Assembly (NCBI RefSeq): GCF_009601025.1
Contig: NZ_WIVE01000028.1
Location: forward strand, 1 to 52,996
Source: Roseospira navarrensis
GTDB lineage: Bacteria > Pseudomonadota > Alphaproteobacteria > Rhodospirillales > Rhodospirillaceae
Direction of reading: 5' to 3'
DNA: 52,996 nt
Shown here: positions 1 through 11,635 of the stretch, piece by piece
How the letters are laid out: every line of letters starts with the position of its first letter
Numbering within the stretch: the first letter of the stretch is position 1
The notes under the pieces: generated by a model
The model's input: only the letters and a program-made list of their open reading frames with translations
Databases searched by the model: none
Told to the model about the DNA's origin: nothing
Position numbers and translations under genes: made by a program

Positions 1-37
1 GCTGGAATTCGAGCAGGGATCGAGGAAACTTGCTCAT
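1..37 (-). mobile_element. 5' end of a probable IS1595-family transposase (cut by window edge)
   Basis: Minus-strand ATG at 37-35 opens a frame reading MSKFPRSLLEFQ that runs off the window. The pattern K-x-P-R-x-L-x-E-F-Q resembles, from memory, the start of IS1595-family transposases (typically followed by RRFPDEAACxxYL). A CGGAG ribosome site lies just upstream on the minus strand. Only 12 codons are visible, so this rests on a short match. If right, the end of the insertion sequence should lie between 37 and about 125, next to the shortened ImmA gene. Confidence 0.4.
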
Positions 38-121
38 GGTCGGGCTCCGGAAATGGCGTGCGTTCACGTTATGTTCTACGCCGTTTCAGGCCACCTGTCA
101 CCACATGATGTGGTCCCGGAC

Positions 122-601
122 TCAAAGGGATAAGCCCTCTTCGGTAATATCCCCATTCGTATCTTTATACGCATTGCGAAAATCACTTTCAGGCATCAAG
201 AAGGCAGCGGCGAACCAATTGGCTTCCCATTCCGTTCGGTCAGAGCCATACCTGAGTGCCTTGACAGGTCCTGTTATCTCTCCGTTGCGATTTGGCCAAA
301 GAAAGTGAAGAACATAATGACCAAGCTCATGGGCCAAAGTGAATCGATCACGTGTTTGACTTGTATCCCAGCTTAGAAATATTGTGAAATCTCTTTCGCC
401 TCTAATCTCAGTCGAGCCAGAATCCGTGTTCTCGTTCCAAAAGTCTTTGTATTGAATGTCGCCGCCCAGTTTTTCTACGATGTCCTCGAGATTTCCGCCG
501 ATATCGTAGCCAACCTGCTTAGCTACGCTTTCCGCGAGCTTTTCCACTGAGTTCTTTGTTAAGCCGCTTGCAGTGGCTGCAGCGAATTTTTGGTCTGACA
601 T
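122..601 (-). CDS. ImmA/IrrE-type metallopeptidase, probably C-terminally truncated
   Basis: 159-residue protein with the zinc-protease motif HELGH (H91, E92, H95) in the context FTLAHELGHYVLHF, and the third ligand region EWEANWFAAAFLMP near residues 124-137. This family (ImmA of ICEBs1, IrrE of Deinococcus) cleaves or acts on Xre-type repressors and often controls mobile elements. No Xre partner is seen beside it. The protein stops at GDITEEGLSL just where relatives continue into a short winged helix (LAxxFxVSxxAVxxRL), and neither other frame restores that tail. Base composition is clearly lower in GC than the chromosome. It is divergent from the restriction gene. Confidence 0.8.
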   Translation of the reverse strand: MSDQKFAAATASGLTKNSVEKLAESVAKQVGYDIGGNLEDIVEKLGGDIQYKDFWNENTDSGSTEIRGERDFTIFLSWDTSQTRDRFTLAHELGHYVLHFLWPNRNGEITGPVKALRYGSDRTEWEANWFAAAFLMPESDFRNAYKDTNGDITEEGLSL

Positions 602-799
602 ATATACCTCTCAGGTCCTGCCCCCGACTGCCTGAAAAGCTAGCCTTGATGAGACCGTATTCAAGGCGGATTCGCGGACGCTATGTCAAGGGCAACTTAC
701 AGATGGCAGCGCGTGAATGATATGGAAGGGGCCGACAATATGCCGTACCCCTGGCCATCAAGCGAGAGAACGCTCGCGGGCGCACGCAAGAGGGCAAAG

Positions 800-3664
800 G
801 TGACCCCCGAATCCTTCATCGCCAAATGGCAAGCCGCCGAGCTCAAGGAGCGGTCCGCCGCTCAGGAGCATTTCATCGACCTGTGCCGCATGCTGGGGGA
901 GCAGACCCCGGCCGAGGCTGATCCCAAGGGCGAGTGGTACTGCTTCGAGCGCGGCGCCACCAAGACCACGGGGGGCGAGGGCTGGGCCGACGTCTGGAAG
1001 CGCGGCCATTTCGGGTGGGAGTACAAGGGCAAGCGCAAGGACTTGTCCGCCGCCTTCGTCCAGCTTCAGCAATACGCGGTGGCGCTGGAAAACCCGCCGC
1101 TGCTGATCGTCTGTGACCTCGACGATTTCGAGATTCACACCAACTGGACCAACACGGTCTCCGAGGTTCATCGGTTCACGCTCGATGACCTGACCCGCGC
1201 CGATGTGCGGGACAAACTGAAGTGGGCCATGAGCGAGCCGGATCGGCTCAAGCCCACCCGCACGCGGGACAGCCTGACGGCGGACGTGGCCAGCGACTTC
1301 GCGGCGCTCGCCGCGTCCCTGCGCACGCGGTTCGCGGATCAGCCACAGGCCGTGGCCCACTTCATCAACCGGATGATCTTCTGCATGTTCGCGGAGGATG
1401 TGGACCTTCTGCCCAACGACATGTTCTCGCGGCTGCTGGACCGGGCTTTTCACGCGCCGGAGGATTTCCCGGACCTCGTGCGGGAGTTGTTCGCGCGCAT
1501 GGCGGCCGGCGGGTTCTTCGGGGTGGACCGGATCGCCTGGTTCAACGGCGGCCTGTTCGATGCCGACGATACCGTCTTTCCTCTGACCCGCGCGGAAATC
1601 GACATCTGCCGCAAGGCGGCGGCCATGGAATGGGGCGACATCGACCCCTCCATCTTCGGCACCCTGTTCGAGCGCGGGCTTGACCCCGACAAGCGAAGCC
1701 AGTTGGGGGCGCACTACACCGACCGCGACAAGATCATGCTGATCGTGGAGCCGGTGATCCTCCGCCCCCTGCTGGCCGAGTGGACCGATGCGAAAGCGGC
1801 CATCGCGGAGGCCATGGCCAAGGCGGAGAACCCCAAGTCCACGCCCGCCACGCGCACTCGGCACCGCAACCGCGCCGAAACGCTGCGGCAGCACTTCATG
1901 GAGCGCTTGCGCGGCTTCCGGGCGCTCGATCCCGCCTGCGGGTCCGGCAACTTCCTTTACGTGGCGCTGCACGCGCTCAAGGACCTGGAACTGCGCGTCA
2001 ACCTGGAATGCGAGGCCCTGGGCCTGCAAAAGGAATTCCCGTCCCTGGGGCCGGAGGTGGTCAAGGGCATCGAGATCAACCCCTATGCCGCCGAACTGGC
2101 CCGCGTGACGGTGTGGATCGGCGAAATCCAGTGGATGAAGCGGCGCGGCTTTGACGTGTCACGGAACCCGATCCTGAAGCCGCTCGATACGATCGAATGC
2201 CGGGACGCGGTGCTGACGGAGGCGGGCAAGGAGGCGCCTTGGCCGAAGGCGGACGTGGTGATCGGCAACCCCCCGTTCCTCGGTGGCAAGCGCATGCGCG
2301 ACGGGCTGGGGGATGACTATGTGAACCGCCTGTTCCGGGCCTATGACGACCGCGTGCCGGCCGAAGCCGACCTCGTGGCCTATTGGTTCGCCAAGGCGTG
2401 GCAGGCGATCCAGGCGGGGACGCTGACGCGCGCGGGGCTGGTCTCGACCAACTCCATCCGGGGTGGCGCCTCCCGCCGGGTTCTGACACCGATTGTCGAA
2501 CAGGGTGCCATTTACGAAGCGTGGGACGATGAACCCTGGGTGGTCGAGGGCGCGGCCGTGCGGGTCGCGATGGTCTGCTTTGCTGCCGCGCCGCCCCTCG
2601 GGGAAAGCCGGTTGGACGGGGTGCCGGTGGACCGCATCTATTCGGACCTCACGTCCGGCGGGGTGGACCTGACCAAAGCGCAACGCCTACCCGAGAACAA
2701 GGGCGTGGCGTTCATGGGCGACACCAAGGGCGGCGCGTTCGATGTTTCGGGGGACGTGGCTCGGGCGTGGCTGAAACAGCCGCTGAACCCGAACGGGCGG
2801 CCCAATGCCGACGTGTTGATGCCGTGGGTCAATGGCATGGACCTGACGCGGCGCCCGGCCGGCAAGTGGATCATCGACTTCGGGTGGGACATGTCGGAGG
2901 CCGACTGCGCACTTTACGAAGAACCTTTTCTATACTCACAAGAGAAAATTAAACCTGATCGTGAGAAGCGTCAGTCACGAGGGTATGCGAAGGCTTGGTG
3001 GCGCCACGAACGCCCAAGGCCGGAGATGTGGGATGCCCTCAAGGGAAACGGTGCCTACATTGCGACTCCAACGGTTGCGAAGTATCGGCTCTTCGTTCGC
3101 TTACCCCGGACGGTCTGCCCGGATCACCAACTCATCGTGATTGCCCGCGACGACGACACGGCGTTCGGCATCCTGCATAGCCGGTTCCATGAGACTTGGG
3201 CGCTCCGCTTGGGGACGTGGCTCGGCAAGGGGAACGATCCGCGCTATACCCCCAGCACGACCTTCGAGACGTTCCCATTCCCCGAGGGGCTGACGCCCGA
3301 CATTCCCGCCGCCGACTACGCGGGCGATCCGCGCGCCATCGCGATTGCGGAAGCCGCGCGCAATCTGGATGAACTTCGCCGCAACTGGCTCAATCCGGCC
3401 GATCTGGTGGAGGTGGTGCCGGAGGTCGTGCCGGGCTATCCGGATCGGCTGATCCCCAAGGACGACGAGGCGGCGGCGGTGCTCAAGAAGCGCACGCTCA
3501 CGAACCTGTATAACCAGCGGCCGGCGTGGCTCGCCAACGCGCACGAGGCGTTGGATCAGGCCGTTGCCGACGCCTACGGCTGGCCCGCCGACATCTCCGA
3601 TGATGACGCGCTCGCCCGCCTGTTCGCCCTCAATCAGGACCGCGCGGCGGCAGAGGGGGCGTGA
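800..3664 (+). CDS. MmeI-like (type IIL) bifunctional restriction endonuclease / DNA adenine methyltransferase
   Basis: Single-chain R-M enzyme that would cut and methylate DNA from one polypeptide of about 954 residues (MmeI is 919). With the GTG start at 800 the nuclease motif is D64-x9-E74-x-K76 (in ADVWKRGHFGWEYKGK), nearly the same numbering as MmeI D70-x9-E80-x-K82, which is why I prefer this start; in-frame ATGs at 683, 722 and 740 are alternatives. SAM motif I is DPACGSGNF (D377) and catalytic motif IV is NPPF (N490). A helical linker containing YTDRDKIMLIVEPVILRPLL separates nuclease and methylase, and the C-terminal third (FETFPFPEG motif, then the terminal helix bundle) is the target-recognition part. 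A 4-nt gap precedes the next gene. GC falls sharply at 2911-3110, inside the recognition domain. Confidence 0.85.
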   Translation: MTPESFIAKWQAAELKERSAAQEHFIDLCRMLGEQTPAEADPKGEWYCFERGATKTTGGEGWADVWKRGHFGWEYKGKRKDLSAAFVQLQQYAVALENPPLLIVCDLDDFEIHTNWTNTVSEVHRFTLDDLTRADVRDKLKWAMSEPDRLKPTRTRDSLTADVASDFAALAASLRTRFADQPQAVAHFINRMIFCMFAEDVDLLPNDMFSRLLDRAFHAPEDFPDLVRELFARMAAGGFFGVDRIAWFNGGLFDADDTVFPLTRAEIDICRKAAAMEWGDIDPSIFGTLFERGLDPDKRSQLGAHYTDRDKIMLIVEPVILRPLLAEWTDAKAAIAEAMAKAENPKSTPATRTRHRNRAETLRQHFMERLRGFRALDPACGSGNFLYVALHALKDLELRVNLECEALGLQKEFPSLGPEVVKGIEINPYAAELARVTVWIGEIQWMKRRGFDVSRNPILKPLDTIECRDAVLTEAGKEAPWPKADVVIGNPPFLGGKRMRDGLGDDYVNRLFRAYDDRVPAEADLVAYWFAKAWQAIQAGTLTRAGLVSTNSIRGGASRRVLTPIVEQGAIYEAWDDEPWVVEGAAVRVAMVCFAAAPPLGESRLDGVPVDRIYSDLTSGGVDLTKAQRLPENKGVAFMGDTKGGAFDVSGDVARAWLKQPLNPNGRPNADVLMPWVNGMDLTRRPAGKWIIDFGWDMSEADCALYEEPFLYSQEKIKPDREKRQSRGYAKAWWRHERPRPEMWDALKGNGAYIATPTVAKYRLFVRLPRTVCPDHQLIVIARDDDTAFGILHSRFHETWALRLGTWLGKGNDPRYTPSTTFETFPFPEGLTPDIPAADYAGDPRAIAIAEAARNLDELRRNWLNPADLVEVVPEVVPGYPDRLIPKDDEAAAVLKKRTLTNLYNQRPAWLANAHEALDQAVADAYGWPADISDDDALARLFALNQDRAAAEGA

Positions 3665-3667
3665 GGC

Positions 3668-4510
3668 ATGCCTGTTCTTCCGATCCAGGAGACGGACCTT
3701 CCCTTGGCTGGCAACGTATTCCTGTCCGCCATGGCCATGGTGTTCAGCCGGGGCGATGCCGCCAAACATGACCTGATGTATCGCGGTCTGCTCGCGCAAG
3801 CGGACTACTTGTCGATCACCCAACGGGGTACGGTCCCCGATATGGACTGGCAGGCGCACGCGAACCTTGTCGAGGCCGGCGCTTTTCGCCGGGAGTGGCA
3901 AGGCGACATCACCCGAGGGATGGTCGGATTCGTCAATACCGCCGAGTTGCTGATCGTCGTCTTGAGCTTGTCCAAGACCAGCCCGAAATGGTCGACTCTG
4001 GAAAATGCTCTTCGGATCGTGGGGCGGCGCCGCACGGCAGCGAAGTTGCGCGGCGCCCGGAGCGGCTTTCTCGCGGACTGGAAAACGTGGAGCCCTATGG
4101 CCCACCTCGGGGCGGCTATGGTGCTGTGCCCAGCGTTTCAGGACGTGCCGCCGGAATTCCTTTCATCCTTCGGTTTGTCGGGCTGGCCTGATCTTGGTGA
4201 GATGCGATTGCCCGACGATGGGCCGGATGATTCGCGAGCTGAATTTCCGGAAGGCTCGCCGCTCCATGCCCTGGGTCTCGACATCCTGGGGCAGTTGGAA
4301 AAACGCTCGCTCAGCTTCCTATCAACAGCGAACCGGGTCCTTGACGATGCCTCCGGGTATTACGCGAGGGGTCAGGAAAAGCTGAACAAACCGCTTTTGG
4401 ACCGGCAGACCGCCTGGACGTTCCCGGAGGCGCTTGACCTCGATCCCTTGCCGGTGACGTACCCCCGAATATCCGACACGGAAGTCTGGTGGCTTGGCGA
4501 ACGAGGCTGA
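3668..4510 (+). CDS. Unknown protein following the MmeI-like enzyme
   Basis: 280-residue soluble protein that I do not recognise. It starts 3 nt after the R-M gene stop (TGA at 3662-3664, ATG 3668), so it is almost certainly translated from the same message. There is no signal peptide or membrane segment and no recognisable catalytic motif. The middle is basic (IVGRRRTAAKLRGARSG, around residues 117-133) and the C-terminus is acidic and proline-rich. Composition is less GC-rich than the chromosome core, like the rest of the island. A role tied to the R-M enzyme is inference from position only. Confidence 0.6.
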   Translation: MPVLPIQETDLPLAGNVFLSAMAMVFSRGDAAKHDLMYRGLLAQADYLSITQRGTVPDMDWQAHANLVEAGAFRREWQGDITRGMVGFVNTAELLIVVLSLSKTSPKWSTLENALRIVGRRRTAAKLRGARSGFLADWKTWSPMAHLGAAMVLCPAFQDVPPEFLSSFGLSGWPDLGEMRLPDDGPDDSRAEFPEGSPLHALGLDILGQLEKRSLSFLSTANRVLDDASGYYARGQEKLNKPLLDRQTAWTFPEALDLDPLPVTYPRISDTEVWWLGERG

Positions 4511-4542
4511 TCTACGCGTTTGTCAAGGAGTCCTAGAAAACA

Positions 4543-4570
4543 TTGGACTCCCCGCAGTCCAAAGTTTCTT
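4543..4570 (+). terminator. Probable terminator after the R-M operon
   Basis: TTGGACT (4543-4549), loop ccccgc, AGTCCAA (4556-4562), followed by the T-rich run AGTTTCTT. It lies 33 nt after the stop of the unknown protein. Two further GGACTC-type words flank it (GGAGTCC at 4528, GGGACTC at 4571), so it could also be part of a binding-site cluster ahead of the AlpA gene. Confidence 0.4.
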
Positions 4571-4651
4571 GGGACTCGTTATCCATTCGTTTTCAGTCGT
4601 TTAGCGTCCTCCTCGGTCATCGCGAGTGACCTGGATTCAAGGAGGACTCAT

Positions 4652-4867
4652 ATGAGCGACACCCATCCGCGCAAACTCCGCGCGCCCGCCGCCGCCGTCT
4701 ACCTCGGCCTGTCCGCGTCCACCCTGGCCAAGATGCGCCTGCGGGGCGACGGGCCGGTCTATTCCAAGGCCGGGCCGCGCATCGTGCTGTATGACGTGGC
4801 GGACCTCGACGTTTGGCTTGCGGGCCGCCGCCGGACCTCGACTTCCGACACGGGAGGCCGGGCATGA
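4652..4867 (+). CDS. AlpA-like excisionase / DNA-binding regulator
   Basis: 71-residue MerR/AlpA-type winged-helix protein. The helix-turn-helix reads APAAAVYLGLSASTLAKMR, and the wing and tail YDVADLDVWLAGRR match the excisionase-like HTH family found in phages and integrative elements, where members act as recombination directionality factors or activators. The ATG at 4652 has an excellent AAGGAGGACTCAT leader, and an upstream extension lacks support. Its stop overlaps the next start (ATGA), so it is translationally coupled to the primase gene. Its place at the head of a primase/DUF3987 operon beside a tRNA supports an element-control role. Confidence 0.8.
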   Translation: MSDTHPRKLRAPAAAVYLGLSASTLAKMRLRGDGPVYSKAGPRIVLYDVADLDVWLAGRRRTSTSDTGGRA

Positions 4868-5754
4868 TGGACGCGGACACCATGGCCGGGGCGCTCGGTC
4901 TCCGGCGGACGGGGCGTGGCACGTTTGGCGGCGCCTGTCCCGCCTGCGGATACCCGAACGCCTTTTTCCTGCGCGAGGGGCGGGAGCGGGTCCTGTTCCG
5001 CTGCCACGCCTGCCGCGATCAGGACGCCATCATGGACGTCCTGACCGACCGGGGCCTGTGGGGGCTCAAAAACGCCGGGGCTGGGTGTGCCCCTGCTCAT
5101 TCTGCTCATCGTGCTAATCACGCGAACACGGCGGCCTTTCGGGATGGGCGCCATGTGGACTTTGCGCGGCGGATTTGGCGGGAGGCCGTCCCGGCGGCGG
5201 GCACGCTGGCCCATACGTATCTAAAGGGGCGTCATCTGCATGAGCCGCCGCCCGGCTCTCTTCGGTTCCACGGCGGTTTGCGACATCCGGAGGCGAGGGG
5301 GCGTCTCCCGGGTATGGTCGCCGCCGTCACCGTCTGGCCGGACCGGGACGTGCGCGCGGTGCATCGAACGTTCCTGAAGCCCGGCGGGGAGGGCAAGGCG
5401 GCGGTGTCGCCGCCGAAGATGACCCTGGGGCCGCTGGCCGGCGGCGCCGTGCGCTTGGCTCCGCTTGGGCCGTGCCTGCTGATCGGGGAGGGCATCGAAA
5501 GCACGCTGTCCGCCATGGCGGTGTTCGACCTGTCGGGGTGGGCCGCGCTTTCGACCGGCGGACTGCGCGGCGTATGCGTGCCGCCGCCTGACCTTGTGCC
5601 GGATATCGTGATTGCCGCCGATCATGACCAGCCCGGTCTCTCTGCGGCGCGGGGCCTGGCGGCGCGTCTGCATGCGCTTGGGCATCGTGTCCGACTCGCG
5701 TGTCCGCCCGACGAAGGCGCCGACTACAACGACGTGCTGCGGGGGGCGGGATGA
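4864..5754 (+). CDS. Zinc-finger / Toprim primase-like protein (DUF7146-type)
   Basis: 296-residue protein. The N-terminal zinc site is CPAC (C25, C28) and CHAC (C47, C50), a CHC2-like primase finger. The middle contains YLKGRHLHEPPPGSLRFHGGLRHP, typical of the DUF7146 segment in phage and plasmid primases. The C-terminus has a Toprim fold with the glutamate motif LLIGEGIESTLSAM and the aspartate motif VIAADHDQPG. It probably primes replication of the integrated element. ATG 4864 overlaps the AlpA stop, and its own stop overlaps the next start, so the three genes form a tight operon. A Toprim-only repair role is possible but less likely. Confidence 0.8.
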   Translation: MMDADTMAGALGLRRTGRGTFGGACPACGYPNAFFLREGRERVLFRCHACRDQDAIMDVLTDRGLWGLKNAGAGCAPAHSAHRANHANTAAFRDGRHVDFARRIWREAVPAAGTLAHTYLKGRHLHEPPPGSLRFHGGLRHPEARGRLPGMVAAVTVWPDRDVRAVHRTFLKPGGEGKAAVSPPKMTLGPLAGGAVRLAPLGPCLLIGEGIESTLSAMAVFDLSGWAALSTGGLRGVCVPPPDLVPDIVIAADHDQPGLSAARGLAARLHALGHRVRLACPPDEGADYNDVLRGAG

Positions 5755-7220
5755 TGGAGGACTTCACCCCGGAGCCGCCGCGCCCCCTCTTGCGCGACCT
5801 GCCCGAGGGGGACCCATACCCGGTGGACGCCCTCGGCCCCGTGCTGGGGGGCGCCGCGCGGGCGATCCATGAGAAGATCCAGGCGCCGTTGGGCATGTGC
5901 GCCCAAAGCGTTCTCGCGGCGGCCGCGCTCACGGTTCAGGGCCGGCGGGACGTTGCCTTGCCCCATGGGCAGGCGCGGCCGTTGTCCTGTTTCTTCCTGT
6001 CCATCGCCCCCAGCGGTGAACGCAAAAGCTCATGCGACTCGGAGGCCCTGGCGCCCGTACGAACGTACGAACAGACCCTCCGCGCCGCGTACGATGAAGA
6101 GGAGATGACGTACCGGAATGAGAAGGAGGCATGGGACGCCTGCCGGCAAGCGATCCTGCGCGGCAAGAAGTCCGGCACCATCCCCGATATCCGCGCGAAG
6201 TTGGATGGCCTGGGGCCGGAGCCAGCGCCCCCGTTGAAGCCGGTCATCGTCTGCGCGGAACCGACGTTCGAGGGGTTGTGCCGGCTGTACGAAGAGGGCC
6301 GGCCCTCGCTGGGCATCTTCTCGGCCGAGGGCGGGCAATTCATCGGCGGCCATGGCATGAGCGAGGAAAACCAACTGCGCACGGCGGCGGCGCTCAGCGA
6401 GGTCTGGGACGGGCAGCCCATTACCCGCGTCCGTGGGGGCACCGGAACCAGCGTGCTCCCGGGGCGGCGTCTCGCCATGCACATGATGACCCAACCGGAC
6501 GTGGCGTCCCGGTTCCTCCAGAATCGGGTGTTGGGCGATCAGGGGCTTCTCTCCCGCTTCCTCGTGTGCGCCCCGGCCCCTGCCGCCGGGACACGGTGTT
6601 TCCGTGAGCCGTCGGACGCCTGCCGGTCCGCCCTCCATACGTATGAACGGACAATCGCGGGTTTGCTTCGGGAGCCGCTTCCGTTGGCCGAGGGGCAGCG
6701 GAACGAACTGGCGCCGCCGGTTTTGGGTTTGTCTGCTAACGCCCGTGCCCGGTTGATTCCGTACATAGGGGAGGTCGAGGCGCGGCTTGGTCCCGCCGGT
6801 ATGTACGAAGCGATCCGGGCCCTGGCCAACAAGCTCCCTGAGCATGCCGCCCGGCTCGCGGCCGTCCTGGCGCTCGTGGCGTATGTTCATACGGATTCGG
6901 TCGCGGCGAACCACATGGAGGCGGGCATTGCCCTTGCGGACTTCTACGCGGGTGAGGCGGTGCGGCTGCATATGGCCGGGCACGACGATCCCGACCTCCG
7001 CCACGCCCAGCGGGCGCTGGACTGGCTCCATACGGGGTGGGGCAAGCCCGTGGTGATGCTCGCCAATCTGTACCAGTCCGGCCCGGGCTCGCTCCGCTCC
7101 GCGAAGGACGCCCGGCGGATCACCCGCATCCTCGAAGATCACGGCTGGCTCGTTCCGATCCCCGGCGCCGAAATTGACGGCGCCCGGCGGAAAGAAGCAT
7201 GGCGGGTGGTCCGTGGATGA
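5751..7220 (+). CDS. DUF3987 (YfjI-like) protein, probable element replication helicase/ATPase
   Basis: 489 residues. The sequence has the DUF3987 core with the P-loop-like segment LSIAPSGERKSS followed by a long helical insert (YEQTLRAAYDEEEMTYRNEKEAW) and the conserved stretch IFSAEGGQFIGGHGMSEEN. DUF3987 proteins are paired with Toprim primases in phages and genomic islands and are thought to act as replicative helicase-like ATPases; that function is inferred, not shown. ATG 5751 overlaps the primase stop (ATGA), whereas the longer in-frame start at 5700 would overlap the primase by 55 nt. The gene ends 158 nt before the tRNA-Ala 3' end, where an integrase would usually sit but none does. 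Confidence 0.75.
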   Translation: MMEDFTPEPPRPLLRDLPEGDPYPVDALGPVLGGAARAIHEKIQAPLGMCAQSVLAAAALTVQGRRDVALPHGQARPLSCFFLSIAPSGERKSSCDSEALAPVRTYEQTLRAAYDEEEMTYRNEKEAWDACRQAILRGKKSGTIPDIRAKLDGLGPEPAPPLKPVIVCAEPTFEGLCRLYEEGRPSLGIFSAEGGQFIGGHGMSEENQLRTAAALSEVWDGQPITRVRGGTGTSVLPGRRLAMHMMTQPDVASRFLQNRVLGDQGLLSRFLVCAPAPAAGTRCFREPSDACRSALHTYERTIAGLLREPLPLAEGQRNELAPPVLGLSANARARLIPYIGEVEARLGPAGMYEAIRALANKLPEHAARLAAVLALVAYVHTDSVAANHMEAGIALADFYAGEAVRLHMAGHDDPDLRHAQRALDWLHTGWGKPVVMLANLYQSGPGSLRSAKDARRITRILEDHGWLVPIPGAEIDGARRKEAWRVVRG

Positions 7221-7310
7221 GCCGGGTGCGAATGGGTTAGCAGGTTTAGCAGGATGAGCGGCGACGGTTTCGGAGGCGCGAAATGTGGTCCTGTGGGCGC
7301 TCGGCCCCCC

Positions 7311-7330
7311 GTGCTTACTATGTGCTTACT
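7311..7330. repeat. Paired GTGCTTACT direct repeats near the island end
   Basis: GTGCTTACT occurs at 7311-7319 and again at 7322-7330, an 11-bp period (one helical turn), about 50 bp from the tRNA 3' end. Spaced short direct repeats at this position resemble arm-type binding sites of a tyrosine integrase or excisionase. That role is inference. Confidence 0.35.
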
Positions 7331-7332
7331 GG

Positions 7333-7378
7333 AATAAAATAAGGGGCTAGACGGTCTGGCCTAACCCCTTGATTTTAT

Positions 7379-7379
<1 letters not shown>
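7333..7379. terminator. Bidirectional intrinsic terminator between the island and tRNA-Ala
   Basis: AATAAAAT-AAGGGG (7333-7346) pairs with CCCCTT-ATTTTATT (7365-7379, one bulged base). This makes a GC stem flanked by A and T tracts on both sides. Read on the minus strand it ends the tRNA transcript with ATTTTATT; read on the plus strand it can stop the DUF3987 operon. Confidence 0.6.
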
Positions 7380-7454
<75 letters not shown>

Positions 7455-7821
7455 GTCGCTGTCTTTGTCTCGCGTCACCCTCCGGGCGTTGGGTGGGTCC
7501 GGTCGGGCGATCGTCTGACGATCTTCCGTCGGACCCCGGGGAGGGTCGGAGCGCCCCGCCGGTGCGGTGGGTGCCCCCTGTCGAGGCCCGGGAACTTAGG
7601 GTCTCGGCTCCGCCGGGGCAAGAAGAAAATTGGGGTCTCCTGCGCTTTTTTTCGGTGCGGTGGCGGATGAATTTCTGTTGGCTCGCTGCGCCCCGGGCGA
7701 CCCCGACGGGGCCGGTGCTCAAGGCGTCGCGTCGCGTCGCCATCCCGGAGGTGGTCGCCCCTGGGCGACCGGGGCGACGGCGGCGATGAACCGGACGAGT
7801 CCGGTTCATCGCCGATCGATC
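7455..7821. other. Gene-free stretch between tRNA-Ala and the FYDLN gene
   Basis: 367 bp without a supportable gene. It must hold the tRNA promoter (minus strand, not resolved). A CGTCGCGTCGCGTCGC run occurs near 7727-7742, and the 14-bp hairpin at 7782-7813 ends the neighbouring gene. Frames open on both strands here look like composition artefacts. Confidence 0.6.
7782..7813 (-). terminator. 14-bp hairpin with CTCG loop, 8 nt after the FYDLN stop
   Basis: GGCGATGAACCGGA (7782-7795), loop cgag, TCCGGTTCATCGCC (7800-7813): a perfect 14-bp stem. On the minus strand it begins 8 nt after the stop codon. It lacks a U tract, so it may protect the 3' end or act with Rho. A second hairpin of the same build lies at 20342-20373. 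Confidence 0.6.
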
Positions 7822-8181
7822 TCAGTCGTCGTCGTTGTCGTTGTCCAGGTGCTCGATGACCTCGGCCATGTCTTCCTCGTCCTCGCCCAGGTCCGAGGCG
7901 TCCTCGATCATGTCGCCGCTTTCCTCGTCGGTCGTCTCGTCGTCGCTCCCCAGGCCCGGTTCGTCGAGACCGGGCTCGTCCAGCGTCTCGTCTGGCACGG
8001 GGGCCGCCTTGGGCTTTTTCTCCGCCGCCGGGGCCGGTTTGGGCCGCCGCTGGCGCACGGGCGCCTCATCCTCGTACACCGCCCCGCACTTGGGGCAGGT
8101 GATGGGCTGGCGCCGCATGTCATAGAAGCGCGCTCCGCAAGAGCCGCAGGTTCGCTTGGATCCCCATTCCGGCTTGGCCAC
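7822..8181 (-). CDS. FYDLN-acid family protein (TIGR02300)
   Basis: 119 residues. The N-terminal zinc-ribbon-like module has C12-x2-C15 and C29-x2-C32 around the family signature FYDMRRQPITCPKC (FYDLN in most relatives). A basic proline-alanine linker follows, then a strongly acidic tail rich in D and E (EDEEDMAEVIEHLDNDNDDD). The family is almost restricted to alphaproteobacteria and commonly lies next to aroA-cmk, as here. Its function is unknown; a nucleic-acid or transcription-linked role is a guess from the zinc ribbon. It is divergent from the AroA-Cmk fusion, with 241 bp between starts. Confidence 0.92.
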   Translation of the reverse strand: MAKPEWGSKRTCGSCGARFYDMRRQPITCPKCGAVYEDEAPVRQRRPKPAPAAEKKPKAAPVPDETLDEPGLDEPGLGSDDETTDEESGDMIEDASDLGEDEEDMAEVIEHLDNDNDDD

Positions 8182-8422
8182 CCTGGTCCTCCCTGGAGTC
8201 TGGCTCGAAACACCGCGGCGCGGTCGGGGGCGGAGTCCGGTTCGGTTCCCCGGCCGGCACCCCGGACCCCTGCGGGGCCGCCACTGGTTGAGTTGGGCGC
8301 GTTTGCCATCATCGCCCGGTCAAGTCAACGTTTCTTGCCGCGCGGGCGGGCGGGCGTCTGTCACCCCGTGCGGGCGTGTGCTAGATGCCCCGTCACACCG
8401 GGCGCAGAAGGAACCGCAGTCG

Positions 8423-9829
8423 ATGACAGAGACCAGAACCACACCGAACGAGGCCGTCGGGTCGGGGGAGGCCCTGGCGCGCGAAATGGCAGCCCCCCTG
8501 GCCGTGCTGCTGGCGGCCTCGACCGTGGGCGAGACCCGCTTGCCGCCCGGGCTGGCGCCGGCGCGCGCGGCGGCCCTGGCGACGGCCCTGGGCGCCGACA
8601 GCGCCGCCGATCCGGCGCGGGACGGGGGGATGGTGATCGCCGGACGCGGGCCGGGCGGCCTGCGGGAGCCGGCGGCGCCCCTGGACCTGTGCGGCCTGCC
8701 GGCCCTGGTCGGCCCGGTCTGCGGGCTGCTGGCGGGGCAGGCGGTGACGGCCATGGTGCTTGTCGGGACCGTGCCGCCCGGGCTGTCCGCGGTGTTGGAG
8801 GCGAGCGGGGCGCGGGTCGTGGCCCCCGGGGCCGGCGCGCACGGTCCGCTGGCCATCGCGGGCCGCGACGCGCCGATGGCGCAGGATCGCAGCGACCGGC
8901 CGGACGACCCGCCGGAGCTGGCGATGGCGGCGCTGTGCATCGGCCTGACCGCGCCGGGCGAAACCAGGGGTCTGCTGCCGCCGGCGCTGGCGGCGCTGGC
9001 GGTGGACCTGTTCGGGGCCTTCGGGGTTCCGGTTGCGGTGACGCCGCAGGGGGCGCGGCTGTGCGTGGCGGTCACCGGCCAGACGGAGACGACCCCGGCC
9101 GCTCTGCCCGACGGCTGGCCCGCCCTGCCGGCCTGGGCGGCGGCCGCGCCCCGTCCGTTGACCATTGCGGTGGACGGCCCGGCGGCGGCCGGCAAGGGCA
9201 CGCTGGCCCGGACGCTGGCGGATCGGCTGGGGCTGGCCTATCTGGACACCGGCCTTCTGTACCGGGCGACCGGCATGGCGGTGAGGGCGGCCGGGGGCGA
9301 CCCGGACAATCCGGGGGATGCCGAGGCGGCGGCCCGCGCCCTGGACCCGACCGCGATCGAGCCCGACGCCCTGCGCGGTGAGGATGCCGGCGATGCGGCC
9401 TCGCGGGTGGCGGCGATCCCGGCGGTGCGCGCCGCTTTGCTCGACCAGCAGCGCGCCTTCGCCCGCCAGCCGCCGGCGGGCGCGCGCGGCGCGGTGCTGG
9501 ACGGGCGCGACATCGGCTCGGTGGTCTGCCCCGACGCGCCGGTGAAACTGTTCGTGACGGCCAGCGTGGAAACCCGGGCCAAACGGCGCGTTCTGGAGTT
9601 GCGGCAGCGGGGGCAAGAGGGTATAGAGTCGCGTGTCCTTCAGGATATGAAGGCACGCGACGCGCGGGATTCCGCCCGCGGCGTTGCACCGCTCGTTCCC
9701 GCGGACGATGCCGTCGTGCTGGACACCTCCGACCTGGACCGGGACGGGGCGCTGTTCGGCGCATTGGCATTGGCCGGGGCTCGCCTGCGCGCGGGCCCGC
9801 AAGGGATGGGCGGACCGCACACCTCCTGA
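8423..9829 (+). CDS. cmk: Cytidylate kinase with a degenerate half-length AroA domain fused at the N-terminus
   Basis: 468 residues in two parts. Residues about 245-468 are a complete CMP/dCMP kinase that phosphorylates CMP and dCMP for nucleotide synthesis. It has P-loop GPAAAGKGT (G252-T260, K258), the YLDTGLLYR motif, DGRDIG (D360-G365) and the terminal RDxxDSxR-type motif KARDARDSARG. Residues 1-243 align by eye to the first half of EPSP synthase: VGETRL, LDL...GLLAGQ (87-106), LTAPGETR (175-182). The catalytic words are gone: the LGNxGT loop is replaced by LCGLPAL and the SSQxxSA serines by PPELAMA. The segment ends where relatives have PGDPSSAAF, so the second half is missing. ATG 8423 is the first sensible start. 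Neighbours cmk-rpsA-ihfB are the standard alphaproteobacterial order, with aroA normally separate and upstream. Confidence 0.9.
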   Translation: MTETRTTPNEAVGSGEALAREMAAPLAVLLAASTVGETRLPPGLAPARAAALATALGADSAADPARDGGMVIAGRGPGGLREPAAPLDLCGLPALVGPVCGLLAGQAVTAMVLVGTVPPGLSAVLEASGARVVAPGAGAHGPLAIAGRDAPMAQDRSDRPDDPPELAMAALCIGLTAPGETRGLLPPALAALAVDLFGAFGVPVAVTPQGARLCVAVTGQTETTPAALPDGWPALPAWAAAAPRPLTIAVDGPAAAGKGTLARTLADRLGLAYLDTGLLYRATGMAVRAAGGDPDNPGDAEAAARALDPTAIEPDALRGEDAGDAASRVAAIPAVRAALLDQQRAFARQPPAGARGAVLDGRDIGSVVCPDAPVKLFVTASVETRAKRRVLELRQRGQEGIESRVLQDMKARDARDSARGVAPLVPADDAVVLDTSDLDRDGALFGALALAGARLRAGPQGMGGPHTS

Positions 9830-9907: not shown

Positions 9908-11635
9908 ATGGCCGAAGCCGCCACAGACATGACCGCCGAGATGGGCGGGATGGAAGACTTCGAGGCGCTCCTGAACGAGACCCTGGGCGAGAACGCCTCT
10001 CTGGAAGGCACCGTCATCAAGGGCACCGTGATCGCCGTGCGCAACGACCACATCGTCGTTGACGTGGGCCTGAAGTCCGAGGGGCGCGTGCCCCTGAAGG
10101 AGTTCACCAAGGCCGGCGAGGACCCGGAACTGCGTCCGGGCGACCCGATCGACGTGTTCGTCGAGCGCTACGAGGACCGTGATGGCAACATCATGCTGTC
10201 CCGCGACAAGGCGCGCCGCGAGGAGGCCTGGAACGAGCTGGAGAAGGCCTACAACGAGAACCAGCGCGTCAAGGGCCAGATCTTCGGCCGTGTGAAGGGT
10301 GGCTTCACGGTGGACCTGTCCGGCGCCATGGCGTTCCTGCCGGGCAGCCAGGTGGACATCCGTCCCGTGCGCGACGTCACCCCGCTGATGGGCCAGCCGT
10401 TCGAGTTCCAGATCCTCAAGATGGACCGCGCGCGCGGCAACATCGTGGTCTCGCGCCGTTCGGTGCTGGAGGAGACCCGCGCCGAGGAGCGGGCTAAGCT
10501 GCTGGAGCGCCTGAAGGAAGGCGAGATCCTGGACGGCGTGGTCAAGAACATCACCGACTACGGCGCCTTCGTGGACCTGGGCGGCGTGGACGGCCTGCTG
10601 CACGTCACCGACATTTCCTGGAAGCGCATCAACCACCCGACCGAGGCGCTGAGCATCGGCCAGACCGTGCGCGTGCAGGTCATCCGGTTCAACCCGGACA
10701 CCCAGCGCATCAGCCTGGGCATGAAGCAGCTGGAGGCCGACCCCTGGGAGGGTGTGGCCGCCAAGTACCCGGTCGGCACCGTGTTCGCGGGCCGCGTCAC
10801 GAACATCACCGACTACGGCGCCTTCGTGGAGCTGGAGCCGGGCGTCGAGGGTCTGGTGCACGTCTCCGAGATGAGCTGGACCAAGAAGAACGTACACCCG
10901 GGCAAGATCGTCTCCACCAGCCAGGAAGTGAACGTCATGATCCTGGACGTGGATCCGGACAAGCGCCGGATCTCGCTGGGTCTGAAGCAGACCATGGGCA
11001 ACCCCTGGTCGGACTTCCTGGAGCGCTTCCCCGTCGGCTCCGAGGTCGAGGGCGAGATCAAGAACATCACCGAGTTCGGTCTGTTCATCGGCCTGCCCGG
11101 CGAGATCGACGGCATGGTCCATCTGTCAGACCTGGACTGGAACCGTTCCGGCGACGAGGCGGTCAAGGACTACGGCAAGGGCGACGTGGTCAAGGCCAAG
11201 GTCCTCGACGTGGACGTGGACAAGGAGCGCATCAGCCTGGGCATCAAGCAGCTCGGCGATGATCCGTACTCCGCCGCCACGGCCGACCTGCGCAAGGGCC
11301 AGATCGTCACCGGCGTCGTGACCCAGGTGCAGGACAACGGCATCGAGGTCGAGGTCGGCGGGGCCGTCGGCTTCATCCGCAAGAGCGACCTGGCCCGCGA
11401 CCGCGCCGATCAGCGGCCGGAGCGCTTCGCCGTCGGCGAGAAGGTGGACGCCAAGATCACCAACATCGACAAGGCGAACCGCCGCATCGGTCTGTCCATC
11501 AAGGCCCGCGAGGTGGACGAGGAAAAGCAGGCCATGGCCGACTACGGCTCGACCGACTCCGGCGCGTCGCTCGGCGACATCCTCGGGGCGGCCCTGAAGC
11601 AGGCCCAGGCCGGCAAGAAGGGCGACGACGAGTAG
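9908..11635 (+). CDS. rpsA: 30S ribosomal protein S1
   Basis: 575-residue S1, which holds mRNA on the 30S subunit. Six S1/OB repeats are visible, each with a GxVxxIxxxGxxV-type core. Repeats 3 to 5 are the most alike (KNITDYGAFVDLGG, TNITDYGAFVELEPG, KNITEFGLFIGLPG), and repeat 6 (VVTQVQDNGIEVEVGG) is the last. Each strong repeat is followed by LHVTDISW/VHVSEMSW/VHLSDLDW and RISLGxKQ. ATG 9908 follows GAAAGGATTGAGACTCC. It lies 78 bp after the cmk fusion and is followed by a strong hairpin, so it forms the end of that operon. Confidence 0.97.
   Translation: MAEAATDMTAEMGGMEDFEALLNETLGENASLEGTVIKGTVIAVRNDHIVVDVGLKSEGRVPLKEFTKAGEDPELRPGDPIDVFVERYEDRDGNIMLSRDKARREEAWNELEKAYNENQRVKGQIFGRVKGGFTVDLSGAMAFLPGSQVDIRPVRDVTPLMGQPFEFQILKMDRARGNIVVSRRSVLEETRAEERAKLLERLKEGEILDGVVKNITDYGAFVDLGGVDGLLHVTDISWKRINHPTEALSIGQTVRVQVIRFNPDTQRISLGMKQLEADPWEGVAAKYPVGTVFAGRVTNITDYGAFVELEPGVEGLVHVSEMSWTKKNVHPGKIVSTSQEVNVMILDVDPDKRRISLGLKQTMGNPWSDFLERFPVGSEVEGEIKNITEFGLFIGLPGEIDGMVHLSDLDWNRSGDEAVKDYGKGDVVKAKVLDVDVDKERISLGIKQLGDDPYSAATADLRKGQIVTGVVTQVQDNGIEVEVGGAVGFIRKSDLARDRADQRPERFAVGEKVDAKITNIDKANRRIGLSIKAREVDEEKQAMADYGSTDSGASLGDILGAALKQAQAGKKGDDE

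What the first reader, a model, noticed from the sequence alone, without database searches (positions are those of the whole stretch)
8423..9829. CMP kinase fused to a dead, half-length AroA (EPSP synthase) domain
Residues 1-243 keep recognisable EPSP-synthase landmarks in order (VGETRL, LDL...GLLAGQ, a PLxIxG strand, LTAPGETR, then the next strand-helix). The phosphoshikimate/PEP residues are replaced: LGNxGT becomes LCGLPAL and the SSQ serines become PPE. The second half (PGDPSSAAF, NWRxKETDR, DHRMAM) is absent, and the frame runs straight into a complete Cmk. Full AroA-Cmk fusions are known in some proteobacteria, but a decayed AroA kept as an in-frame cap on an essential kinase is unusual. 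The open frame over 240 codons suggests selection on a new structural or regulatory role.
Basis: partly seen in the sequence, partly recalled or inferred. Interest (0 to 1): 0.75.

Follow-up and report, generated by a model that had tools for sequence, protein, structure and literature searches.

The report
Dead EPSP-synthase domain fused to Cmk
In this purple bacterium, half of an old enzyme for making aromatic amino acids has lost its active site, has been kept as a protein domain, and is now joined to a nucleotide kinase, while a different version of the enzyme elsewhere in the genome appears to do the old job.

Summary
8423-9829 is one 468-codon frame: the N-terminal domain of EPSP synthase (AroA), a short linker and a complete (d)CMP kinase. 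A plain Pfam scan misses the AroA part, but a profile from six congeners matches EPSP-synthase structures (E 1.4e-17), and the predicted fold agrees. The genus is Roseospira: one congener is R. marina.

All 6 held genus genomes keep this half-AroA directly before cmk, where 48 of 51 placed relatives outside the genus have aroA. Catalytic motifs are lost. All 6 carry an intact aroA elsewhere, of another type (E. coli/plant-like, where relatives have the CP4-like type). So the native enzyme was displaced and its remnant kept.

The remnant is fused to Cmk in 4 of 6 and is a separate upstream frame in 2 of 6. Codon models reject neutral evolution in a fused and in an unfused species pair, so it is selected as a protein. 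The fused species lack the usual cmk ATG.

What the domain does is not shown; I favour a non-catalytic partner or stabilising domain for Cmk. A published precedent is the truncated EPSPS remnant on TyrA of Pseudomonas syringae. New variant of a known kind.

The parts
8406..8413 (+). Shine-Dalgarno-like AGAAGGAA, 9 nt before the ATG of the fused gene
   Evidence: sequence; duplex energy -5.0 for the upstream stretch
8423..9091 (+). Residues 1-223: non-catalytic EPSP-synthase N-terminal domain (aligned core about residues 25-223)
8684..8704 (+). Residues 88-94 (DLCGLPA), where the GNSGT motif of native AroA stood
   Evidence: alignment with 23 native AroA
8909..8917 (+). Residues 163-165 (PPE), aligned with native S-A-Q (substrate site; role recalled)
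9092..9157 (+). Residues 224-245: linker; W232 and W238 are shared by the 4 fused species and not by the 2 unfused
   Evidence: alignment A4; W238 column also
9158..9829 (+). Residues 246-468 and stop: complete (d)CMP kinase; the ATG start seen in unfused relatives is absent
   Evidence: TIGR00017 above cut-off; starts
7822..8181 (-). TIGR02300/FYDLN_acid gene, divergent neighbour
9908..11635 (+). rpsA (30S ribosomal protein S1), next gene after cap-cmk

Best explanation
The native CP4-like aroA of the Roseospira ancestor became redundant when a different, E. coli/plant-like aroA settled elsewhere in the genome (shown by distribution and sequence type; order of events inferred). The native gene then lost its second domain and its catalytic residues but kept its first domain as a selected protein frame directly upstream of cmk (shown). 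Later, probably once in the ancestor of four of the six species (support 88/90), the stop and the usual cmk ATG were lost and the domain became the N-terminal part of Cmk. By sequence it cannot make EPSP. It most likely acts as a non-catalytic partner of Cmk, stabilising it or tuning its amount or activity, first in trans and then in cis (inferred). My estimates: nature and history 0.9; protein-level selection 0.9; a role exerted on or through Cmk 0.45.
For: Homology to the EPSPS N-terminal domain. Six of six genus genomes have the remnant before cmk; 48 of 51 placed genomes outside the genus have aroA directly before cmk, one of them (G073) only as a fragment at a contig end. Intact aroA elsewhere in 6 of 6. 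Type: the window genome's intact AroA is nearest plant-type and E. coli/Vibrio enzymes in the PDB (up to 308 bits; CP4 122-125), while a native relative is nearest CP4 (467 bits; E. coli about 118); the cap profile follows the native pattern (best 67 bits to the CP4-like group, at most 20.6 to Vibrio entries). In a tree the intact genus copies lie across a 100/100 branch from 24 native rows. Of 100 native columns conserved at 90% or more, 60 are lost in at least 5 of 6 caps and 28 kept in at least 5, mostly G, L, P, A. Selection: omega = 1 rejected with likelihood-ratio statistics 104.6 (G002/G003, fused) and 101.9 (G001/G005, unfused); 40 neutral simulations at the divergence of G002/G003 reach at most 4.3 and give identity 0.35-0.49 against 0.60 observed. 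No in-frame start codon position at the Cmk boundary is shared by the four fused species, while 10 of 11 relatives read (16 tried) have ATG in MI(I/V)AIDGPA. Sixteen cap-invariant residues are not the native majority.
Against: No experiment shows the protein or a role. Over 15 species pairs the cap's dN is 2.0-3.3 times that of Cmk and 3.8-8.1 times that of the intact AroA, so constraint is loose. Omega values are unreliable because synonymous sites are saturated. The domain tree does not place the caps: they form a long branch apart from both AroA types, and grouping with the genus's own intact AroA is not rejected (p-AU 0.098); descent from the native gene rests on position and profile scores. 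Lost columns include 8 Gly and 7 Leu, not only catalytic letters, and five of the 60 lie at or past the domain end. An Arg still aligns with the native RPM Arg in G005. Each fused species has some GTG or TTG near the Cmk start, and G002 an ATG at residue 234, so internal starts cannot be excluded. The fold model used three sequences, one of them a true AroA. Contacts between the two domains could not be judged.
Confidence: 0.6

Rival explanations
1. Passive passenger: once fused, the remnant must fold and stay soluble so as not to harm the kinase; it has no job of its own.
For: Kept residues are mostly G, L, P, A; rates are high; models of Cmk with other whole N-terminal partners exist (NCBIfam PRK13477 and PRK11860).
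Against: The same constraint is seen in the pair where the remnant is a separate frame (G001/G005, statistic 101.9), where this reason does not apply.
Confidence: 0.25
2. Leader frame: the remnant is kept because its translation carries ribosomes to cmk; its amino acids do not matter.
For: Separate remnant and cmk overlap as ATGA in G001; Shine-Dalgarno pairing before the separate cmk of G001 and G005 is modest (-5.5 and -4.0).
Against: Selection acts on amino acids in the right frame. In G005 51 nt separate the cap stop from the cmk ATG. A leader needs no conserved fold.
Confidence: 0.12
3. Recent pseudogene still decaying, open by chance in GC-rich DNA.
For: The window protein alone no longer matches PF00275; other long frames overlap here.
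Against: Open in 6 of 6 species at 39-60% identity; neutral evolution rejected in the 5 of 15 pairs tested.
Confidence: 0.04
4. The cap is not translated; Cmk starts near 9158.
For: A TTG at residue 246 in the window could start MTIAVDGPAA (pairing -5.0), and the other fused species have GTG codons nearby.
Against: No start position is shared by the four fused species; the usual ATG is gone; the cap is under protein-level selection.
Confidence: 0.04
5. The remnant still works as an EPSP synthase or complements the other AroA.
For: EPSPS-domain fold is predicted.
Against: Second domain absent; the K, S, R, N, S-A-Q and R-D-H positions of the first domain are lost in 6 of 6; intact AroA present in 6 of 6.
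Confidence: 0.02

Closest known systems
Truncated EPSPS domain (there called AroF) on TyrA of Pseudomonas syringae, with a laterally acquired stand-alone EPSPS (PMC1173090, BMC Biol 2005; section 23 read whole, passages)
   Same: Native EPSPS disabled by loss of part of the protein, remnant kept on a working partner, foreign EPSPS elsewhere; the authors suggest the remnant might become a regulatory domain.
   Different: There the partner is TyrA, the fusion came before the decay, the lost part is about 200 residues given as N-terminal in section 23 and Table 5 and as C-terminal in another passage, in one species. Here the partner is Cmk, decay came before the fusion, one N-terminal domain is kept, and conservation across 6 species could be tested.
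Bifunctional AroA-Cmk (NCBIfam NF008816, PRK11860)
   Same: Same two genes joined in the same order.
   Different: There both enzymes are complete; here 163.8 bits against a cut-off of 943, matching only the Cmk part.
CP4-like EPSP synthases (2gg4/2pqb), Coxiella (3roi), and native AroA of the relatives ('class II', recalled label)
   Same: Sequence profile and fold of the N-terminal domain.
   Different: No second domain, catalytic residues lost.
N-terminal domain of Vibrio cholerae EPSPS solved alone (3ti2)
   Same: Same single domain, matched along its length (TM by target 0.59-0.66 for the cap model; 0.71 for the fusion model), so the domain can stand alone.
   Different: Domain of a full-length enzyme, solved on its own.

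Membership tests
(d)CMP kinase, TIGR00017 | score above the curated cut-off (135.55) | tested here: met
   161 bits over residues 246-438
EPSP synthase / AroA, TIGR01356 | equivalog score above 287.25 over the full length | tested here: not met
   no TIGR01356 match listed for the window protein at E <= 10
EPSP synthase / AroA, TIGR01356 | first-domain motifs GDKS, GNSGT, RPM, S-A-Q, TRDH (roles recalled) | tested here: not met
   the K, S, R, N, T, S-A-Q and R-D-H columns: 23 of 23 native AroA, 0 of 6 caps; the RPM Arg: 23 of 23 native, lost in 5 of 6 caps
EPSP synthase N-terminal domain (fold and descent) | profile and fold match over the domain | tested here: met
   E 1.4e-17; Foldseek E 8.6e-9, probability 1.00
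Bifunctional AroA-Cmk, NF008816 | score above 943 with both enzymes | tested here: not met
   163.8 bits, only the Cmk part
Pseudoenzyme / non-catalytic domain | loss of catalytic residues with selection on the protein | tested here: met
Pseudoenzyme / non-catalytic domain | no enzyme activity; a shown non-catalytic role | not testable with these tools
   needs purified protein and mutants
Displacement of native aroA by another type | working copy of another sequence type, native place holding only the remnant | tested here: met
   6 of 6 genomes; type (window genome and one relative); donor not identified

The most novel reading that the evidence does not exclude
An EPSP-synthase domain freed by gene displacement has become a dedicated regulator or chaperone of CMP kinase: it bound Cmk as a separate protein first (still so in two species) and was then captured as a fused domain with a docking linker, so the genus preserves both stages of the birth of a new two-domain enzyme.
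Probability: 0.35. Interest if true: 0.7.

Novelty: new variant of a known kind. Interest (0 to 1): 0.52.

Why it matters
How displaced enzymes become non-catalytic domains is mostly inferred from end states. Here intact native AroA (relatives), separate dead domain (two species) and fused dead domain (four species) sit at one conserved gene place, with the displacing gene known. That makes the step from redundancy to a new protein part directly testable, and it tests a suggestion made in print in 2005 for a similar EPSPS remnant (PMC1173090).

Tried and rejected
Plain Pfam/NCBIfam scans of the window cap gave nothing usable; overcome with a genus profile. A domain tree could not place the caps with either AroA type: each group is its own clade, the cap branch is long, and grouping with the intact genus AroA is not rejected. 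Nei-Gojobori dN/dS of 0.40-0.86 for the 15 cap pairs looked loosely constrained to near neutral, but the method ignores base composition (GC 0.90 at third positions), so codon models (5 of the 15 pairs), neutral simulations (one pair's divergence) and wrong-frame controls (3 pairs) were run. Wrong-frame controls were mixed: reverse frame rc1 also rejects omega = 1 with omega below 1 (statistic 83, 50, 41) but less than the true frame (102, 107, 73); frame +2 and rc2 reject it with omega above 3 (40-64); frame +1 and rc0 gave 0-9 with omega 0.9-1.9. Three genomes outside the genus also lack aroA before cmk (G014, G016, G032); a MeaB/ArgK-like frame stands there (name recalled, no family search) and I saw no remnant by eye. 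Profile search of 73 family genomes: 66 match at E <= 1e-5, one or two places each; no other genus scored near the caps (best 97.7 bits against 298.9-350.8); shorter frames in G022, G057, G058, G395, G397 and G402 were not followed up. The second PF00275 match of the genome was taken as MurA from its weak aroA-model score, not tested with a murA model. In one search one row (L085, the genome's own copy) was mislabelled as native. Literature: searches found no paper, 64 one, 70 two, 66 and 67 listings only (start of abstracts seen); only PMC1173090 bears on it. Roseospira genome papers were seen as a listing only.

Full report
WHAT IS THERE. The frame at 8423-9829 (+) is open and codes for 468 residues. 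Residues 246-438 are a (d)CMP kinase above the curated cut-off (TIGR00017, 161 bits against 135.55). Residues 1-241 give no Pfam match at E <= 10 and only a marginal hit to the AroA part of a bifunctional model (E 0.0077). It passes better tests. A profile of the six genus sequences finds EPSP synthases among PDB sequences, best E 1.4e-17 (3rmt, profile positions 59-213), then about 1e-16 (3roi, 3tr1, 4gfp, positions 26-238) and CP4 entries at about 1e-13; Vibrio cholerae entries come at 0.002-0.009. hhalign against one native AroA gives E 9.9e-17. The same AroA part is hit more clearly by other caps alone (R. marina 5.3e-8, G001 1.4e-8). An AlphaFold2 model of the cap (mean pLDDT 71.3, pTM 0.74, three rows of which one is a true AroA) matches EPSP synthases in the PDB first (CP4, E 8.6e-9, probability 1.00) and also the separately solved N-terminal domain 3ti2. 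The model of the whole fusion (pLDDT 75.8, pTM 0.57) matches Cmk and EPSPS structures. The kept part is therefore one structural domain.

WHERE IT COMES FROM. Six genus genomes are held and all six have the remnant. Of the 54 genomes outside the genus I could place both aroA and cmk in 51 (not G008, G022, G025). In 48 of these 51 they are neighbours on one strand (one, G073, with only part of aroA at a contig end); in G014, G016 and G032 they are not. In the genus 0 of 6 have an intact aroA before cmk. In the window the remnant is followed by cmk, rpsA and a Bac_DNA_binding (HU/IHF-type) gene and preceded by a divergent TIGR02300 gene.

THE REPLACEMENT. All six genus genomes have an intact aroA elsewhere (TIGR01356, 414-424 bits) with the motifs GSKS, GSAGT, SSQ, SDA, ESDR, DDHR and SKT kept in an alignment of the six (one reads RPL for RPM; motif roles recalled). 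It is of another type than the native enzyme. The window genome's copy is nearest a group of PDB entries that includes a chloroplast EPSPS (308 to 305 bits), then, among others, Vibrio and E. coli (267-240), with CP4 at 122-125. The native AroA of a relative (L034) is nearest CP4 (467-463 bits), with E. coli at about 118. These groups are commonly called class I and class II (recalled). In a sample of 299 genomes of the phylum the intact genus AroA finds 54 at E <= 1e-60: its own, two of the same class (39 and 43% identity) and 51 outside the class (34-41%). In a tree the genus copies lie across a 100/100 branch from 24 native rows. The donor is not identified.

DECAY. Of 100 columns conserved at 90% or more in 23 native AroA, 60 are lost in at least 5 of 6 caps, 28 kept in at least 5, and 22 kept in 6 of 6. 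Lost in all six are the Lys, Ser and Arg of GDKSISHR, the Asn and Thr of GNSGT, S-A-Q and the Arg-Asp-His of TRDH; the RPM loop is deleted in four and altered in two, with an Arg still aligned in G005. The lost set also holds 8 Gly and 7 Leu, and five of its columns lie at or past the domain end. Kept are mainly Gly, Leu, Pro, Ala. Forty-three residues are invariant in the caps, 27 of them the native majority residue and 16 not.

FUSED OR NOT. In G000 (window), G002, G003 and G004 the frame runs through into Cmk; in G001 the cap's stop and the cmk start overlap as ATGA; in G005 the cap ends in TGA and the cmk ATG follows after 51 nt. A tree of RpsA plus Cmk rooted on 13 relatives puts G001 and G005 together (100/100) and the four fused species together (88/90), so one fusion event is favoured but not firmly. 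In 10 of 11 relatives whose start could be read (of 16 tried) Cmk begins with ATG as MI(I/V)AIDGPA; the four fused species lack that ATG and have no start position in common at the boundary, though each has a GTG or TTG nearby and G002 an ATG at residue 234. Two tryptophans of the linker (W232, W238) are shared by the four fused species and not by the unfused ones.

SELECTION. Over 15 pairs dN of the caps is 2.0-3.3 times that of Cmk and 3.8-8.1 times that of the intact AroA (for G002/G003: 0.314, 0.137, 0.067). A codon model with position-specific base composition rejects omega = 1 in all five cap pairs that I tested, with likelihood-ratio statistics of 68 to 105, including the independent pairs G002/G003 (fused) and G001/G005 (unfused). 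At the divergence of G002/G003, 40 neutral simulations gave a statistic of at most 4.3, identity 0.35-0.49 and mean changes of 0.33/0.38/0.26 at the three codon positions; observed are about 102, 0.60 and 0.28/0.24/0.46. One reverse frame also shows omega below 1, always weaker than the true frame. Synonymous sites are saturated, so I use the test and not the omega values.

HOW IT PROBABLY WORKS. Shown: descent of the domain from EPSP synthase, loss of its active site by sequence, presence in all held genus genomes, protein-level selection in a fused and an unfused pair. Inferred: that the protein is made, that displacement came before decay, that it is the native gene's remnant (position and profile scores; the tree is silent), and that the role is exerted on Cmk. 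The unfused pair weighs against a mere passenger. The steady place directly before cmk, the later fusion and the linker tryptophans weigh for a partner of Cmk. A partner elsewhere cannot be excluded.

KNOWN OR NEW. A model of AroA-Cmk fusions of two whole enzymes exists (NF008816). The nearest precedent is PMC1173090 (section 23 read whole): in Pseudomonas syringae the EPSPS part of a TyrA-EPSPS fusion lost about 200 residues, a foreign EPSPS was acquired, and the authors considered that the remnant might become a regulatory domain; the same paper gives aroF(EPSPS)-cmk-rpsA as a stable alphaproteobacterial linkage group (passages). In seven searches of the open-access library I found no paper on an EPSPS remnant fused to Cmk; subscription papers are mostly not covered. 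I rate it a new variant of a known kind.

Noticed in passing
window 683-7220: MmeI-type restriction-modification methylase, a 280-residue protein without Pfam match, a HTH_17 protein, a DUF7146/Toprim_3 protein and a DUF3987 protein next to tRNA-Ala(GGC) at 7379-7454 (-): looks like an integrated mobile element. A direct-repeat search of 1-8000 showed no clear attachment repeat (20 of 39 families shown).
   Followed up: partly
G014, G016, G032 (L101, L102, L103): In these relatives a MeaB/ArgK-like frame (name recalled), not aroA, stands directly before cmk: aroA left the row in other lineages too, with no remnant seen by eye.
   Followed up: partly
G003 contig C91 (L039, L106): In one congener the intact aroA lies about 12.5 kb from the fused gene on the same contig; in the other five it is on another contig. 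Within the 8-11 kb stretches compared, flanks of the window genome's intact aroA matched only G004, so the gene may have moved within the genus.
   Followed up: partly
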